Shown: positions 7,501 to 12,958 of the stretch, piece by piece
Layout: each line of letters begins with the position of its first letter
Numbering within the stretch: the stretch's first letter is position 1
NCBI GenBank assembly: GCA_021827245.1
Contig: JAKAWN010000175.1
Coordinates: 1 to 13,021 of the forward strand
Source: Acidobacteriota bacterium
GTDB taxonomy: Bacteria; Acidobacteriota; Terriglobia; UBA7540
Length of the DNA stretch: 13,021 nt
Direction: 5' to 3'
The notes under the pieces: model-generated
Database searches by the model: none
The model's input: only the letters and a program-made list of their open reading frames with translations
Told to the model about the DNA's origin: nothing
Program-made: the position numbers and the translations under genes

Positions 7501-7680
7501 TTACCCAATCGCAGCAAGCATACCGGCGCGAATTGCTTCCACTAACTGGTTCCACTCATCCTTCCCCAAGGTTACCGTATTCCTATCTTCGCCGATCCGG
7601 ACGTGGTCTGCGAAGACCTCAACCGCAGGGCACTCACTGCAGGAAGGACAAAGGCTCATGACTTGAATTGGTTTCTGCAT
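7501..7680 (-). CDS. 59-residue Cys-rich protein of the metal cluster
   Basis: This small gene encodes 59 residues and is easy to miss because of its length. The start is well supported: AGGAGA (7694-7689) lies eight bases before ATG 7680. The N-terminus has a CPSCSECP motif (11-18; Cys 11, 14 and 17), then VEVFADHVRIGEDRNTVTL and an acidic amphipathic helix DEWNQLVEAIRAG (41-53). The pattern of Cys-x2-Cys-x2-Cys-Pro, VRIGED and an EWN helix resembles small uncharacterised proteins I recall from other bacterial genomes; this is memory, not a search. The three thiols suggest binding of a soft metal. It follows the glutaredoxin by 104 bases on the same strand and is probably the last gene of the MerR-controlled operon. 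No function is established. Confidence 0.8.
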   Translation of the reverse strand: MQKPIQVMSLCPSCSECPAVEVFADHVRIGEDRNTVTLGKDEWNQLVEAIRAGMLAAIG

Positions 7681-7784: not shown

Positions 7785-8021
7785 CTAAACGATCCCGAGC
7801 AGCTTCGCGAGCTTGGCTTGGTCAAAGCCCACGACCACTTCGCCATCGATGAACGTTACCGGTGTGGTCAACAGGCTCCTCCTCTGAAGTTCGTCCAGAG
7901 CCGCCGCGTCGCTACTCACGTCGCGCTCCTCAAATGCGATTCCGTGTTGCGAAAGAAACTCTTTCGTGCGGTTGCAGAACATTCAGCCAGGCTGGCTGAA
8001 AACAACGACTTTCTTCGTCAT
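7785..8021 (-). CDS. probable selenocysteine-containing glutaredoxin (UxxC), with in-frame TGA
   Basis: Starting at ATG 8021, preceded by GAGGAG (8034-8029) at seven bases, the frame reads MTKKVVVFSQPG, then TGA (7985-7983), then MFCNRTKEFLSQHGIAFEERDV and onward to a stop at 7785. If the TGA is read as selenocysteine the product has 78 residues, normal for NrdH/glutaredoxin-type proteins. The TGA falls at the first Cys of the CxxC redox site (U13-M-F-C16). The rest of the fold is intact: first beta strand KKVVVFSQPG, cis-proline loop TTPV (52-55) and C-terminal GFDQAKLAKLLGI. A SECIS-like hairpin follows at 7950-7966. Taking the stop at face value leaves 65 residues starting at ATG 7982, with no ribosome binding site, no first strand and half an active site. 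It would be a cytoplasmic thiol/selenol oxidoreductase; in a MerR/MerT operon, metal binding by the selenol is possible. The alternatives are a nonsense mutation or a sequencing error. Confidence 0.8.
7950..7966 (-). promoter_or_regulatory. candidate bacterial SECIS hairpin
   Basis: Read on the minus strand, CGAAAGA (7966-7960) and TCTTTCG (7956-7950) form a perfect 7-bp stem around a GTT loop. The loop begins 24 bases after the TGA at 7985-7983. The published bacterial SECIS consensus asks for a loop 16-37 bases from the UGA, a short stem and a G in the first two loop positions; all are met. The loop starts GU, the bases important in E. coli fdhF. A further CCG/CGG pairing may extend the base of the stem across an internal loop. 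Confidence 0.7.
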
Positions 8022-8036
8022 CGGTGATCTCCTCGG

Positions 8037-8570
8037 TCAGTAAACCAAGTAAATATCAGCTCGCGCACGATGCTGGAGGATCTCGTCGAGCGACAGGGGC
8101 TTGGCGATTGGATCAAGTTGGCCGACGTCGTGCACGCCATTGGAGAGGCTTGTAAGCTGCGCCATGACGCCGTTGAATGTCACTTCCACGCCGTGGTCAT
8201 GCAGCCAATGGAGAAAGTCCTGGTAGGTTCTGGGGAAATCTTTTTCCGTGGGCGTTTTGTATTCGGCTGCCAGGATGCTTTTGAGCTTTTCGGGGATTTC
8301 ATAAGCAAGACTCGTCGGCTTGCCCTGCCAGATCTTGAGATCCACCACGGCCCCCGCATCAAAAAGCATTTCCACTTTCGCACCCTGTTTGAGCGCTGCA
8401 AATGCCGCGTCAAAGGCCACGCAAGGCTGGTTATCATCCTGCTTGAAGCCAGTCTTCAGGTGAATAAGAACACGCTTGCCAGCCAGCGGACCCGGAGCGG
8501 CCCAAGCCCCGCTCACCGTCAAAATAAACGCCAGCACGAGGGCCAGCGGCACAAAAGATTTTCGCTTCAT
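8037..8570 (-). CDS. exported DsrE-like protein
   Basis: This is a 177-residue protein with a clear signal peptide (MKRKSF, hydrophobic PLALVLAFILTVSGAWA, cleavage near AWA-AP at 24-26). The mature part has the DsrE/YchN-like alternation of strands and helices: KRVLIHLKTG (32-41), FDAAFAALKQGAKVEMLFDAGAV (53-75), and HDHGVEVTFNGVMAQL (124-139). DsrE relatives usually handle sulfur through a Cys in the loop after the HGVEV strand; here that position is Asn-Gly-Val and the only Cys is C50. Sulfur-transfer chemistry of the usual kind is therefore unlikely. GGAG (8582-8579) lies eight bases upstream, and the start overlaps the metallochaperone stop (ATGA). The glutaredoxin starts 15 bases after its stop. 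A periplasmic role linked to metal or thiol stress is inferred from the operon only. Confidence 0.8.
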   Translation of the reverse strand: MKRKSFVPLALVLAFILTVSGAWAAPGPLAGKRVLIHLKTGFKQDDNQPCVAFDAAFAALKQGAKVEMLFDAGAVVDLKIWQGKPTSLAYEIPEKLKSILAAEYKTPTEKDFPRTYQDFLHWLHDHGVEVTFNGVMAQLTSLSNGVHDVGQLDPIAKPLSLDEILQHRARADIYLVY

Positions 8571-9113: not shown

Positions 9114-9743
9114 TCACTCCTTACCCTGGCTGTGGGTGGGAGTCACTTTGTAGCCAGCCTCTTCGATAGCTTTGACGAACCTCTCGGCCGAGACCACGCG
9201 TGGGTCGTAATCTACGGTCGCTAGCTTCGTCTCAAAGCTCACCTTGGCACTGCGCACGCCCTGGATTCGGGTTAGGTTTTTTTCAATCAGTGCGGCACAC
9301 GCAGTGCAGTCCATGCCTTGAATGCTCAGCACGGCGTGAGCGGCTGCGATATTCGTTGTCTGCTGGGGAGCTTTTGGCTCGCGGCCAAACCCACGCACAA
9401 GTGATCCCGAATAGTACGGAAACGCCGCAAGGACCATGACCAGACCCGTCACGACCCAAAGGGCTATACGGCTAGAACTGACGAACCGAGGCCGTTCGCA
9501 CAGGCTGCCGGGCTCGCACCCTGGGGAACGAGGCCGGTACGCGAAATAAAATGCGACGCCGAGCAATGCGAACGTCAGCCCGAGGAAATACGGCCGCCAC
9601 GCCGCGAAAAACGCCGAAGCCGCGAATCCGGCCACTCCCAGCGCTGCCGCCCCCACCGGAAGAATGCAGCAGAGCGACGCTGCTACCGCTGCGCCGATGG
9701 CGCCAACGATTGCCCATCGAGGTGAATTCGTTATCCGATTCAT
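9114..9743 (-). CDS. merTP: MerT-MerP fusion, mercuric ion transport protein
   Basis: This is a 209-residue fusion. The N-terminal half is MerT-like: three membrane segments (about 11-38, 51-70, 92-112), a vicinal Cys pair at the first helix (SLCCILP, C25-C26) and a second Cys pair in the cytoplasmic loop (C76, C82). The C-terminal half (about 136-202) is a MerP-like heavy-metal-associated domain with the motif GMDCTAC (143-149). In mer systems Hg2+ passes from MerP cysteines to the MerT pairs and then to cytoplasmic thiol proteins. The start has AAGGAGG (9758-9752) eight bases upstream and a MerR-type promoter at 9773-9804. It heads the operon containing the metallochaperone, DsrE-like protein and glutaredoxin. 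Uptake of Hg2+ without a visible merA implies that either merA lies elsewhere or another intracellular sink is used. Another soft metal is possible. Confidence 0.92.
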   Translation of the reverse strand: MNRITNSPRWAIVGAIGAAVAASLCCILPVGAAALGVAGFAASAFFAAWRPYFLGLTFALLGVAFYFAYRPRSPGCEPGSLCERPRFVSSSRIALWVVTGLVMVLAAFPYYSGSLVRGFGREPKAPQQTTNIAAAHAVLSIQGMDCTACAALIEKNLTRIQGVRSAKVSFETKLATVDYDPRVVSAERFVKAIEEAGYKVTPTHSQGKE

Positions 9744-9772: not shown

Positions 9773-9804
9773 ATCCTAAGCCTTTGAGTATTCTCTAGAG
9801 TCAA
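9773..9804 (-). promoter_or_regulatory. MerR-type promoter/operator of the merTP operon
   Basis: On the minus strand a -35 TTGACT (9804-9799) and a -10 TAGGAT (9778-9773) are separated by 20 bp, the overlong spacer that MerR-family activators correct. The + strand spacer CCTTTGAGTATTCTCTAGAG matches the element before merR (CCTTGAGT...CTCGAGGGTCAAG) over most positions, so both are probably bound by the same regulator. Confidence 0.75.
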
Positions 9805-9961: not shown

Positions 9962-10381
9962 CTAACGGCCCAATTTCACGAGCACAGGACATCTACCTTC
10001 ACCGCCGGGATGGTGGCGTTTTAACTGCCGTCTGCATTCGGCGAGAACGCCCTTTAAGTCCTTCTCCATGGCTAGCAGTTCCCGGAGCTTCATCCGCACG
10101 CTCGCCAGTTTTTCTTCCACGAGCGATTTCACATGAGAGCAAGCACTTGTGCTGCGATCCTTCAACACCAGCAATTCACGGATCTCATCGAGTGAGAAGC
10201 CGAGTTCTTGGGCCTTCCGAATGAACTTGAGCTCCTCCACTGTTTGAGGTGAGAAGATCCGGTAGCCCGAGTTGGTGCGAGTCGCCTCTCGCAGCAGCCC
10301 TTCAGCTTCATAAAACCGGATGGTGTGGACGCTCAGGCCAGTCTGCCGCGAAACGTCGCCAATAAAAGTCCTTTCAACCAT
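9962..10381 (-). CDS. merR: MerR-family metal-responsive activator, mercury type
   Basis: This is a 139-residue MerR-family regulator. The N-terminal winged helix (FIGDVSRQTGLSVHTIRFYE, about 6-25; GYRIFSPQTVEELKFI, about 39-54) is followed by the dimerisation coiled coil (about 78-115). Cys81, Cys116 and Cys131 match the order of the three Hg ligands of Tn501 MerR; the 35-residue gap between the first two is identical, while the last loop (ECRRQ to GRCPVL) is six residues longer. This favours Hg2+ sensing, but Pb, Cd or Zn sensors share parts of this pattern. ATG 10381 is chosen because GGAG (10393-10390) is eight bases upstream; a TTG six bases earlier is too close. Unlike classical mer loci, merR is not divergent from merT but upstream in the same direction. 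Confidence 0.92.
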   Translation of the reverse strand: MVERTFIGDVSRQTGLSVHTIRFYEAEGLLREATRTNSGYRIFSPQTVEELKFIRKAQELGFSLDEIRELLVLKDRSTSACSHVKSLVEEKLASVRMKLRELLAMEKDLKGVLAECRRQLKRHHPGGEGRCPVLVKLGR

Positions 10382-10404
10382 AGTCAATTCTCCGTCCCTC
10401 CAGA

Positions 10405-10436
10405 AGGATAAACCCTTGAGTTAACTCGAGGGTCAA
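10405..10436 (-). promoter_or_regulatory. MerR-type promoter/operator of merR
   Basis: On the minus strand -35 TTGACC (10436-10431) and -10 TATCCT (10410-10405) are 20 bp apart. The spacer holds a near-perfect dyad: ACCCTTGAGTT (10412-10422) against the complement of AACTCGAGGGT (10423-10433), 10 of 11 positions. This is the standard architecture of CueR/ZntR/MerR promoters and indicates autoregulation. Confidence 0.85.
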
Positions 10437-11278: not shown

Positions 11279-12127
11279 ATGGGCGAACTAATGAGCACAA
11301 ACCACAACCCGGGCCTGAAAACGGTTGGTCCAAGGATGGCCCAGCTTTTGACAGCGCTTCACGATCGATCGCAAACGACGTTCACGCTGCGAGACGTCCA
11401 AAGCATCACCGGCTTGCGCTCCAGCCTGGCCAGCAGTCTGATTCACAAAGCGGCCAAGCGAGGTTTGGTGTCCCGATTGAAACGGGGTGTCTTTGTTATT
11501 GTTCCCGCAGAACTCGGCAGCACCACGGAGTATTCAGGAAATCCCTATTTAGTCGCGCGCCAACTGGCCGGTGACGCTCCATATTTCATCTCGCACGCTT
11601 CCGCGATGGAACTTCACCGCATGGTGACCCAGCCTCAACTGGTCGTCTTCGTCTCCAGCACCAAACGGATACCTAATCGCACGCTCCAAGGAACCGAATT
11701 CCGCTTCGTCTTGGTCAAGGCGACCCACTTCTTTGGCGCTACAAAGCATTGGGTAACGAAGCAGGAATTTGTACACGTGAGCGATCTTGAGCGGACGATA
11801 ATTGACGGTTTGCGGCAGCCCGAGTACTGTGGCGGCGTAGCCGATGTCGCCAAGGCCCTCTGGATGCGTCACCAGGACATCGAGACGGCGAAGCTGGTGG
11901 ACTACGCTCTTCGCCTTCGAGTGGGCGCCGTTACTCGCCGCCTTGGCTACTTACTCGATCTCTATGCAATCGCGCCGGAAGCCCAACTGAGAATGCTGCG
12001 CGACGTTCTTACGGATACCTACGTTCGGCTCGATCCCACCTTGCCGATGGAGGGCCTCCACGTAGCACGCTGGCGTCTTCAACTGAATATCACGCCTCAA
12101 GAACTCCAAGCAATCCGAGCGACGTAG
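11279..12127 (+). CDS. abiEi: AbiEi-type antitoxin and autorepressor
   Basis: This 282-residue protein is the antitoxin of an AbiE type IV toxin-antitoxin pair. The N-terminal winged helix (about 19-75: LRDVQSITGLRSSLASSLIHKAAKRG, ending LKRGVFVIVP) is the AbiEi DNA-binding domain. The middle part (YFISHASAMELHRM, VFVSSTKRIP, VSDLERTIIDGLRQPEYCGG) matches the conserved core of the AbiEi/transcriptional-regulator family, and the C-terminal part is helical. In studied cases it represses the operon and neutralises AbiEii indirectly, without forming a stable complex. ATG 11279 and ATG 11291 are both possible; neither has a strong ribosome binding site. The stop is followed directly by the toxin start, so the two genes are co-translated. 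Confidence 0.9.
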   Translation: MGELMSTNHNPGLKTVGPRMAQLLTALHDRSQTTFTLRDVQSITGLRSSLASSLIHKAAKRGLVSRLKRGVFVIVPAELGSTTEYSGNPYLVARQLAGDAPYFISHASAMELHRMVTQPQLVVFVSSTKRIPNRTLQGTEFRFVLVKATHFFGATKHWVTKQEFVHVSDLERTIIDGLRQPEYCGGVADVAKALWMRHQDIETAKLVDYALRLRVGAVTRRLGYLLDLYAIAPEAQLRMLRDVLTDTYVRLDPTLPMEGLHVARWRLQLNITPQELQAIRAT

Positions 12128-12958
12128 GTGATTCCACAGCGGAACATTTCGATGTTGTCCAACCGCTTGGCGAAACAGGGCGGCCGTCGGATCCGCGAGG
12201 ACGTGCTCGAACGCGACTACTGCCTGGCTTGGTTCCTTGCCGCCTTAGGGGAATCGGATTTGCGAACGAGTCTAGCTCTTAAAGGGGGAACAGCTTTGAA
12301 GCGGTGCTACTTCGGCGACTACCGCTTCTCAGAAGACCTCGACTTCACTCTTCTCGAAGCAAACCCTTTTGACGACATATTGCGTCGCATGGAGCGCGTT
12401 TATGAGTCAGTCCGCGAAAGCTCTGGGATCGTTTTCGCCTTCGACAGAGAAGATCGGCAAACGCACGCAAACAGCTACACGTGCTATCTTTCGTACACCG
12501 GCCCGTTGCCTGTAGGTAATGACGTCAAAGTGGACATCACGGTTCGCGAGCGTCTCCTTTTTCCAGTTGAGCAGCGCCTGCTCTTACAAGGCTACGACGA
12601 GTTCACTGACCTTCCCGAAGATCGCCGGATTCAGGCTTATTCACTCCAGGAAATCGTCGCCGAGAAGGTCATTGCCTTGGCTGATCCGGCGCGCAATGAA
12701 CCGCGCGACCTCTACGATTTGTGGTACCTCACGACGAACGAGGCCATCGAGCTCGATCACTTGGCCGATCCGATTCGCCAGAAACTTGAATTCCGCGAAA
12801 GACCCTTTGCGGATCTCCAAGATGCTATCCTTGGCAAGGAGGCGAGGCTCAAGGTACTTTGGTCCAAGCGCTTGGCCTACCAGATGAGCACGTTGCCGCC
12901 ATTCGATGAGGTTTTCCGCAGTCTGCGCCGAACGCTTCGCCGATCCACGCTGCCGTAG
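12128..12958 (+). CDS. abiEii: AbiEii nucleotidyltransferase toxin
   Basis: This is a 276-residue toxin of the AbiE system, belonging to the DUF1814/nucleotidyltransferase superfamily. The catalytic motifs are all seen: LKGGTALKR (51-59, the glycine-rich GGxxLK loop), SEDLDFT (68-74, two metal-binding Asp), the third Asp in VKVDITV (D136) and the C-terminal EIVAEK (175-180) with RDLYDLWYL (193-201). AbiEii relatives transfer nucleotides to target RNA, and activation during phage infection stops growth. The likely start is the GTG at 12128, directly after the AbiEi stop, with translation coupled; ATG 12152 is the alternative. The full length and intact motifs suggest an active system. Confidence 0.93.
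   Translation: MIPQRNISMLSNRLAKQGGRRIREDVLERDYCLAWFLAALGESDLRTSLALKGGTALKRCYFGDYRFSEDLDFTLLEANPFDDILRRMERVYESVRESSGIVFAFDREDRQTHANSYTCYLSYTGPLPVGNDVKVDITVRERLLFPVEQRLLLQGYDEFTDLPEDRRIQAYSLQEIVAEKVIALADPARNEPRDLYDLWYLTTNEAIELDHLADPIRQKLEFRERPFADLQDAILGKEARLKVLWSKRLAYQMSTLPPFDEVFRSLRRTLRRSTLP

What the first reader, a model, noticed from the sequence alone, without database searches (positions are those of the whole stretch)
7785..8021. In-frame TGA at the redox Cys position: candidate selenocysteine glutaredoxin
The frame from ATG 8021 has a strong ribosome binding site (GAGGAG) and reads through the first beta strand of a glutaredoxin directly into a TGA, then MFC and the rest of the fold. 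TGA sits exactly where the first Cys of CxxC is expected, giving UxxC. Total length, cis-Pro TTPV and C-terminus are all normal. An ORF caller would report a truncated 65-residue protein with no ribosome binding site. Selenocysteine-containing glutaredoxins are known in some bacteria; one inside a MerR/MerT operon is not one I recall.
Basis: partly seen in the sequence, partly recalled or inferred. Interest (0 to 1): 0.93.

Follow-up and report, generated by a model that had tools for sequence, protein, structure and literature searches.

The report
Selenium-containing redoxin in metal-response operon
This bacterial gene carries a UGA codon at the redox-active position of a small glutaredoxin-like protein, where the 67 related genes read here have either UGA or a cysteine codon, so it likely makes a selenocysteine protein that gene callers cut short; it sits beside metal-sensor and metal-transport-like genes and would help handle toxic metals.

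Summary
Frame 8021-7785 (-) reads MTKKVVVFSQPG-U-MFCNRTKEF... with one TGA at 7985-7983. In 68 distinct rows (67 loci plus the window) that codon is TGA (44) or Cys (24). Codons before the TGA are under purifying selection. A hairpin with GU in its loop, 22 nt after the TGA, is kept beyond chance in TGA genes, not in Cys genes. All 43 TGA genomes hold selB or tRNA-Sec, against 9 of 22 Cys-only genomes. The closest solved structure is cGrx1 of Clostridium oremlandii, a native selenoprotein with Sec at the same residue number. So it is a new member of a known kind (UxxC selenoglutaredoxin). New are an acidobacterial clade stored in databases as about 65-residue fragments and its place beside MerR, MerT-HMA and CopZ-like genes (11 of 19 close loci). 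The window's own genome is not held, so its Sec machinery is inferred from relatives; the soft-metal role is inference. Contrary: two protein records with Arg at the site, one relative with an extra stop, seven TGA genomes without a tRNA-Sec hit, and no excess stability of the single-sequence fold.

The parts
7785..8021 (-). selenoglutaredoxin CDS, 78 aa, MTKKVVVFSQPG-U-MFC...
   Evidence: PF00462 E 3.5e-18; AlphaFold2 mean pLDDT 93.2, pTM 0.81; best fold match cGrx1 7c10
7983..7985 (-). in-frame TGA, codon 13, predicted selenocysteine codon (U of UxxC)
   Evidence: TGA or Cys codon in 68 of 68 rows
7950..7966 (-). candidate bacterial SECIS hairpin CGAAAG-AGUUU-CUUUCG; loop begins 22 nt after the TGA
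   Evidence: comparative pairing test; loop size, G position and spacing fit the published model (PMC13188914 Fig. 2 legend, passages seen)
8029..8034 (-). ribosome binding site GAGGAG, 7 nt before ATG 8021
   Evidence: read from the sequence
8037..8570 (-). 177-aa protein with a signal-like N-terminus (own reading); two relatives match DsrE only below threshold
   Evidence: relatives 71-80% identical directly upstream of the TGA redoxin in L097, L106, L108
8567..9103 (-). CopZ-type Fe-S metallochaperone (NF047645)
   Evidence: 133 bits against cut-off 100; zf_CopZ PF18423 over cut-off
9114..9743 (-). MerT-HMA (MerTP-like) fusion
   Evidence: PF02411 52.8 and PF00403 67.7 bits, both over cut-off; below the cut-off of NF033556 (140.2 against 180)
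9962..10387 (-). MerR-family regulator (probable ATG start at 10381)
   Evidence: PF13411, PF09278, PF00376 over cut-off; no metal-specific NCBIfam model reaches its cut-off
10405..10436 (-). MerR-type promoter TTGAC-N21-TATCCT with palindrome (8 of 9 pairs) before merR
   Evidence: found in 3 of 20 contexts scanned (window, L001 with 9 of 9, L092 with 7 of 9); 0 in 50 shuffled windows; the pattern was written after seeing the site
9773..9804 (-). possible second, weaker MerR-type promoter before the MerT-HMA gene
   Evidence: read by eye; not reported by the palindrome filter

Best explanation
The gene at 8021-7785 (-) is a glutaredoxin-family reading frame interrupted by one UGA at the position of the catalytic cysteine, and that UGA is likely read as selenocysteine through a predicted hairpin just behind it, which would give a UxxC selenoredoxin. 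Inferred decoding: SelB with Sec-tRNA would bind the hairpin CGAAAG-AGUUU-CUUUCG, whose loop starts 22 nt after the UGA. Inferred chemistry: Sec13 attacks a disulfide or a metal-bound thiol and Cys16 resolves it, as described for the native selenoprotein cGrx1, in which the two residues have the same numbers. Inferred role: made together with a MerR-type regulator, a MerT-HMA membrane carrier and a CopZ-type chaperone, it would keep the Cys pairs of these carriers reduced, or take soft metal off them, when a metal such as Hg(II) is present. Shown here: the UGA and its conservation, selection on both sides of it, the conserved hairpin, Sec machinery in relatives, and the neighbouring genes. Not shown: Sec in the protein, co-transcription, the metal, the substrate, and the machinery in the window's own host.
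For: Codon 13 is TGA in 44 and TGC/TGT in 24 of 68 distinct rows; the second Cys is kept in 68 of 68. Codons 2-12, before the TGA, have pN/pS 0.34 over 19 sequences against 1.77 and 1.51 in the shifted frames; the 36 nt before the ATG show no codon periodicity. Hairpin: 123 of 140 pairs in the 20 close TGA rows against 85.2 (sd 4.8) for synonymous recoding, 132 of 168 in 24 other TGA rows against 89.1 (sd 5.2), 81 of 168 in 24 Cys rows against 76.4 (sd 4.0); GT at loop positions 23-24 in 20/20, 13/24 and 2/24. selB over cut-off in 41 of 43 TGA genomes and 9 of 22 Cys-only genomes; tRNA-Sec over cut-off in 36 of 43 and 6 of 22; either in 43 of 43 and 9 of 22 (Fisher p 3e-8). selA and selD in 17 of 17 close TGA genomes tested and 2 of 13 Cys genomes tested; the selD match itself holds one TGA in 16 of those 17. 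Nearest solved relative by sequence and fold: cGrx1, ungapped, positions 13 and 16 aligned, a native selenoprotein (PMC7642778, passages seen). Metal-type neighbours in 11 of 19 close loci.
Against: No genome is held for the window, so its own Sec machinery is untested. Two of 120 listed protein relatives have Arg at the site (P0008, P0009). Seven of 43 TGA genomes have no tRNA-Sec over the cut-off (G006 at 42.5 bits, G019, G636, G352, G296, G704, G686) and two no selB over it (G001, G301). L038 (G019) has a further in-frame TAG; L084 (G686) has a diverged N-terminus without ATG at codon 1. The single-sequence fold is no more stable than shuffles (z -0.25); the best isolated hairpin is -7.0 kcal/mol against the published limit of -7.5, the 53-nt stretch -9.6. 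With shared ancestry allowed for, only 2 independent pairs stand on supported branches, too few for a test. The metal role rests on neighbours alone: 8 of 19 close loci show none, and no mercuric reductase was found among the 13 window proteins given to Pfam.
Confidence: 0.92

Rival explanations
1. The TGA is a true stop: a 12-codon leader peptide ends there and the protein is a 65-aa redoxin that starts at the ATG directly behind it.
For: In the window and 13 other TGA rows an ATG follows the TGA directly (14 of 44); database gene callers use it.
Against: 30 of 44 TGA rows have no ATG, GTG or TTG there. The 12 codons before the TGA are under purifying selection as codons and encode the first strand (5-9) of the predicted fold. 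The hairpin is kept in TGA rows only.
Confidence: 0.03
2. The gene is a recent pseudogene or carries a sequencing error at one base of a Cys codon.
For: One base separates TGA from TGC or TGT; the window is a single assembly; one relative (L038) does carry a second stop.
Against: The same codon is TGA in 43 other loci from as many genomes, and the rest of the frame is open and conserved.
Confidence: 0.02
3. The UGA is read as another amino acid (Trp, Gly or Arg) by a changed code or a suppressor.
For: Two protein records show Arg at the position (P0008, P0009), one transition away from TGA.
Against: In every non-TGA DNA row the codon is Cys (24 of 24); tRNA-Sec or selB is present in 43 of 43 TGA genomes.
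Confidence: 0.02
4. It is a selenoredoxin, but a general one (for example for peroxiredoxin or MsrA); the metal genes beside it are incidental.
For: 8 of 19 close loci show none of the metal partners in the fetched stretch; cGrx1 is proposed as reductant of the selenoprotein MsrA (PMC7642778, passages).
Against: 11 of 19 close loci do. A MerR-type promoter stands before merR in L001 and L092, where merR is the gene before the redoxin gene. Five contig lengths above 2500 besides the window's own occur in both the redoxin and the MerT-HMA hit lists, which suggests shared contigs but compares lengths, not names.
Confidence: 0.4

Closest known systems
cGrx1, selenoprotein glutaredoxin-1 of Clostridium oremlandii (PDB 7c10, 7c12, 7c13; Sec replaced by Cys in the structures)
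   Same: Ungapped alignment over residues 1-77, E 1.1e-17; TM 0.91, rmsd 0.8; Sec/Cys13 and Cys16 at the same residue numbers; native selenoprotein (PMC7642778, passages).
   Different: Motif UMFC against U/C-P-H-C; 44% identity in the fold alignment; different phylum; here in a MerR/MerT-HMA setting. Use of GSH unknown here.
UXX-star selenoproteins (NF041212, NF041114, NF041211)
   Same: Small glutaredoxin-like proteins with Sec near the N-terminus; Sec proposed as metal ligand (PMC13188914, passages).
   Different: NF041212 score 53.5 against a cut-off of 66; family 1 is listed as UxxT, this protein keeps UxxC.
YruB-family and NrdH redoxins (TIGR02196, TIGR02194)
   Same: Best NCBIfam match (68.8 bits); similar length; fold matches to NrdH structures.
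   Different: Below both cut-offs (88.55 and 85.75).
Selenoproteins of metal-handling genes: Sec-containing MerT (PF02411), CopZ family form 2 (CU), MerT/CopZ fusion-like NF045683
   Same: Same kinds of neighbour genes; Sec already predicted in mercury-related transport proteins (PMC13188914, passages; model listed).
   Different: Here the MerT-HMA and CopZ-type partners have no in-frame TGA and the Sec sits in the redoxin.
Synechocystis MerA-like enzyme under control of glutaredoxin 1 (Marteyn 2013, seen only as cited in passages of PMC8261052)
   Same: A glutaredoxin tied to mercury reduction.
   Different: No selenocysteine is mentioned there; no MerA was found in this window.

Membership tests
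bacterial selenoprotein | in-frame UGA at a position where homologues have Cys | tested here: met
   44 TGA, 24 Cys, 0 other among 68 DNA rows; 2 Arg among 120 listed protein records
bacterial selenoprotein | coding selection on both sides of the UGA | tested here: met
   pN/pS 0.34 for codons 2-12, 0.445 for codons 14-52, 19 sequences
bacterial selenoprotein | bSECIS: loop 3-9 nt, G in first two loop positions, 16-37 nt from UGA, MFE <= -7.5 (PMC13188914) | tested here: inconclusive
   loop, G and spacing met (5 nt, 2nd position, 22 nt); energy -7.0 for the isolated hairpin, -9.6 for 53 nt; comparative pairing strong
bacterial selenoprotein | selA, selB, selC, selD in the host | tested here: inconclusive
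   window genome not held; found in relatives; tRNA-Sec in 31 of 40 genomes of the order of the nearest relative
bacterial selenoprotein | Sec detected in the protein | not testable with these tools
   needs 75Se labelling or mass spectrometry
glutaredoxin family (PF00462) | profile over the curated cut-off and thioredoxin-type fold | tested here: met
   66 bits against 22.9; AlphaFold2 pLDDT 93.2, cGrx1 top hit
glutaredoxin family (PF00462) | reduction by glutathione | not testable with these tools
   biochemical question
UXX-star family NF041212 | profile score over cut-off | tested here: not met
   53.5 against 66
YruB redoxin TIGR02196 / NrdH TIGR02194 | profile score over cut-off | tested here: not met
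   68.8 against 88.55 and 56.6 against 85.75
mer (mercury resistance) operon | MerR- and MerT/MerP-type genes | tested here: met
   PF13411, PF02411, PF00403 over cut-offs; but the Hg-specific models TIGR02051 (108.2 against 150.85) and NF033556 (140.2 against 180) are not reached
mer (mercury resistance) operon | mercuric reductase MerA | tested here: not met
   none among the 13 window proteins given to Pfam; a pyridine-nucleotide disulfide oxidoreductase piece lies upstream in L108

The most novel reading that the evidence does not exclude
A dedicated selenoredoxin of soft-metal resistance: an acidobacterial clade of UMFC/UIFC/ULFC redoxins, stored in databases as about 65-residue fragments, in which selenium at the catalytic site was selected to take Hg(II) or a similar soft metal off the Cys pairs of MerT-HMA and CopZ-type carriers, or to re-reduce them, under MerR control.
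Probability: 0.35. Interest if true: 0.65.

Novelty: new member of a known kind. Interest (0 to 1): 0.48.

Why it matters
A clade of redoxins appears to be cut short in databases: 118 of 120 listed relatives start just behind the position of the UGA, so the catalytic residue and first strand are missing from their records. If the metal link holds, it ties selenocysteine, whose selenol binds mercury very strongly (recalled), to metal handling in Acidobacteriota, and makes the question of why a metal operon uses Sec rather than Cys testable with a 78-residue protein.

Tried and rejected
Own genome: not held, so selABCD could not be sought in the host. Plasmid collection: no match to the operon DNA. 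Rfam on the window: no match at gathering scores; no tRNA in the window. Energy of the hairpin alone: uninformative. Start at the ATG behind the TGA: rejected, as 30 of 44 TGA rows have no ATG, GTG or TTG there. A different meaning of UGA: rejected, as only Cys codons alternate with TGA in the DNA rows. UXX-star, YruB and NrdH membership of the window protein: below cut-offs; of six relatives scanned, one (L003, Dehalococcoidia) passes NF041212 at 69.2 against 66. The label DsrE-like for the 177-aa protein came from my own reading; Pfam gave nothing for the window copy and only E 0.018 and 0.055, below the gathering score, for two relatives, so it stays a guess. Phylogeny-corrected association: only 2 independent pairs on supported branches, no power. 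The TAG reported for L081 is not at codon 13, which is TGC. A class search around G019 covered only 2 genomes and added nothing.

What the counts leave out. Rows not read at codon level: 18 match rows for which no locus was fetched. Dropped as duplicates: L037 (same as L001) and L089 (same as L010). L108, a second TGA copy in G576, was used for context only. G301 holds both a TGA copy (L039) and a Cys copy (L066) and is counted among the 43 TGA genomes, not among the 22 Cys-only ones. selA and selD were sought in 17 of the 43 TGA genomes and 13 of the 22 Cys-only ones. One search used stricter filters. The hairpin pairs tested and the promoter pattern were chosen after seeing these sequences; the controls are Cys rows and synonymous recoding, and shuffled windows. 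L002, L011 and L013 count low because their hairpin is shifted in register.

Full report
What is in the window. On the minus strand, ATG 8021 opens a frame MTKKVVVFSQPG-TGA-MFCNRTKEFLSQHGIAFEERDVSSDAAALDELQRRSLLTTPVTFIDGEVVVGFDQAKLAKLLGIV-stop. GAGGAG lies 7 nt before the ATG, and the upstream gene ends 15 nt before it. The only in-frame interruption is TGA at 7985-7983. Standard ORF calling gives a 65-aa protein from ATG 7982. Read through with Cys in place of Sec, the product matches PF00462 at 66 bits against a cut-off of 22.9. AlphaFold2 gives a confident model (31 sequences, pLDDT 93.2, pTM 0.81) with strand 5-9 and then helix 14-25, so residue 13 sits at the start of the active-site helix.

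Conservation of the TGA. Of 385 database relatives 120 were listed; 118 of them begin at the residue right behind the TGA position and 105 are exactly 65 aa. A scan of the genome collection gave 14 loci; searches of 396 (phylum), 40 (order) and 399 (class) genomes around the nearest relative gave more (the sets overlap). The gene is not common there: 3 of 40 genomes of the order and 46 of 399 of the class have a match at the limits used, Cys forms included. After removing two duplicates, 67 loci plus the window were read at codon 13: TGA 44, TGC 16, TGT 8, nothing else; the second Cys of the motif is kept in 68 of 68. Eighteen further match rows were not fetched and are not counted.

Selection before the TGA. 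In 19 close sequences codons 2-12 show pN/pS 0.34 and codons 14-52 0.445, while the same nucleotides in the two shifted frames give 1.77 and 1.51. Differences by codon position are 0.31, 0.26, 0.59 for codons 1-12 and 0.72, 0.70, 0.67 for the 36 nt before the start. Synonymous sites are near saturation, so these are relative figures. The stretch before the TGA evolves as coding sequence in frame with what follows.

Hairpin. Sixteen nt behind the TGA stands CGAAAG-AGUUU-CUUUCG. The published model asks for a loop of 3-9 nt, G in one of its first two positions, 16-37 nt spacing and MFE at or below -7.5 kcal/mol (PMC13188914, Fig. 2 legend, passages seen). Loop, G and spacing (22 nt) fit; the isolated hairpin is -7.0 and the 53-nt stretch -9.6 with a z-score of -0.25, so energy alone says nothing. 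Comparison does: against synonymous recoding the same seven pairs form in 123 of 140 cells in the 20 close TGA rows (expected 85.2, sd 4.8), 132 of 168 in 24 other TGA rows (expected 89.1, sd 5.2) and 81 of 168 in 24 Cys rows (expected 76.4, sd 4.0). GT at the loop position is found in 20/20, 13/24 and 2/24. Several of the other TGA rows have a UPPC motif and their best hairpin elsewhere.

Sec machinery. The window's genome is not held. In the genomes of the loci, selB over cut-off is found in 41 of 43 TGA genomes and 9 of 22 Cys-only genomes, tRNA-Sec over cut-off in 36 of 43 and 6 of 22, and at least one of the two in 43 of 43 and 9 of 22 (Fisher p 3e-8). selA and selD are present in 17 of 17 close TGA genomes tested, and in 2 of 13 Cys-only genomes tested; the selD match holds one TGA in 16 of the 17. 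Misses: G001 and G301 for selB; G006 (42.5 bits, below the cut-off of 47), G019, G636, G352, G296, G704 and G686 for tRNA-Sec. Shared ancestry weakens the Fisher figure: the best tree needs 6 changes between TGA and Cys, supported branches force 2, and only 2 independent pairs stand on supported branches. The host is probably of the same order as G001 (L001, titled Acidobacteria bacterium isolate gp13): the four genomes that match the window's Nramp protein best (76-82% identity) are G433, G434, G443 and G439, all of that order, and 31 of its 40 genomes, these four included, carry tRNA-Sec. G001 itself has no Nramp match at that threshold, and those four have no redoxin match.

Neighbourhood. 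Upstream on the same strand lie a MerR-family gene, a MerT-HMA fusion, a CopZ-type Fe-S metallochaperone (NF047645, 133 against 100 bits) and a 177-aa protein. Among 19 close loci (unequal flanks, one with only 200 bases upstream), 11 hold at least one of these near the redoxin gene; L097 and L108 repeat the order CopZ type, 177-aa protein, redoxin, and L001, L092 and L093 have merR as the gene before it. In 20 contexts scanned, a MerR-type promoter with palindrome was found in 3: before merR in the window (10436-10405), L001 and L092; 0 in 50 shuffled windows. The metal is unknown: no metal-specific MerR model passes its cut-off, and no mercuric reductase was found among the 13 window proteins given to Pfam.

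How it likely works. The nearest solved structures by sequence and by fold are those of cGrx1 of Clostridium oremlandii, aligned without gaps with Cys13 and Cys16 at the same numbers. cGrx1 is a native selenoprotein; the first residue of its motif attacks the target and the second Cys resolves it (PMC7642778, passages seen). By analogy Sec13 attacks and Cys16 resolves. In this setting the likely targets are the Cys pairs of the MerT-HMA and CopZ-type proteins; this step is inference.

Known or new. Selenoglutaredoxins with UxxC were predicted in Sargasso Sea data (PMC1088965, passages) and listed for Geobacter and Alkaliphilus (PMC1794560, passages); Sec is predicted in MerT, CopZ-family and UXX-star proteins (PMC13188914, passages). 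In ten library searches the listings and the passages I opened show no selenoglutaredoxin in a MerR/MerT operon; the library holds open-licence papers only, and I read no paper whole. I class it as a new member of a known kind in a setting I did not find described.

Noticed in passing
window 7501-7680 (-): 59-aa ORF behind the redoxin gene with a CPSCSECP motif; a 40%-identical stretch lies in L003 at 8111-7992, a contig that also holds a TGA redoxin. No Pfam family over its cut-off.
   Followed up: partly
window 11279-12958 (+): AbiEi/AbiEii type IV toxin-antitoxin-like pair (PF09407/PF13338 and PF08843).
   Followed up: no
L038:1573-1575: A TGA redoxin with an additional in-frame TAG at the place of residue 25, in a genome (G019) with selA, selB and selD but no tRNA-Sec hit.
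   Followed up: no
P0008, P0009: Two relatives read QPGRMFC, with Arg at the Sec position, one transition from TGA; no DNA seen.
   Followed up: no
P0176, P0198, P0229: MerT-HMA proteins with an extra N-terminal stretch; the precomputed extra domain is PF13192 (Thioredoxin_3) in P0176 and PF10865 in P0229, none in P0198: a hint that a redoxin-like module is tied to this carrier elsewhere.
   Followed up: partly
L002 3152-4507: The L002 redoxin gene lies near ORFs that look like ArsM and ArsR by my own reading (no family search), so its metal partner may be arsenic there.
   Followed up: no
L040, L081, L082, L088: CPPC-type redoxins with Cys codons in genomes without selB and tRNA-Sec hits, in the same part of the tree as TGA forms: likely Sec-to-Cys replacement; L087, a Cys form beside them, is in a genome that does have both.
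   Followed up: partly
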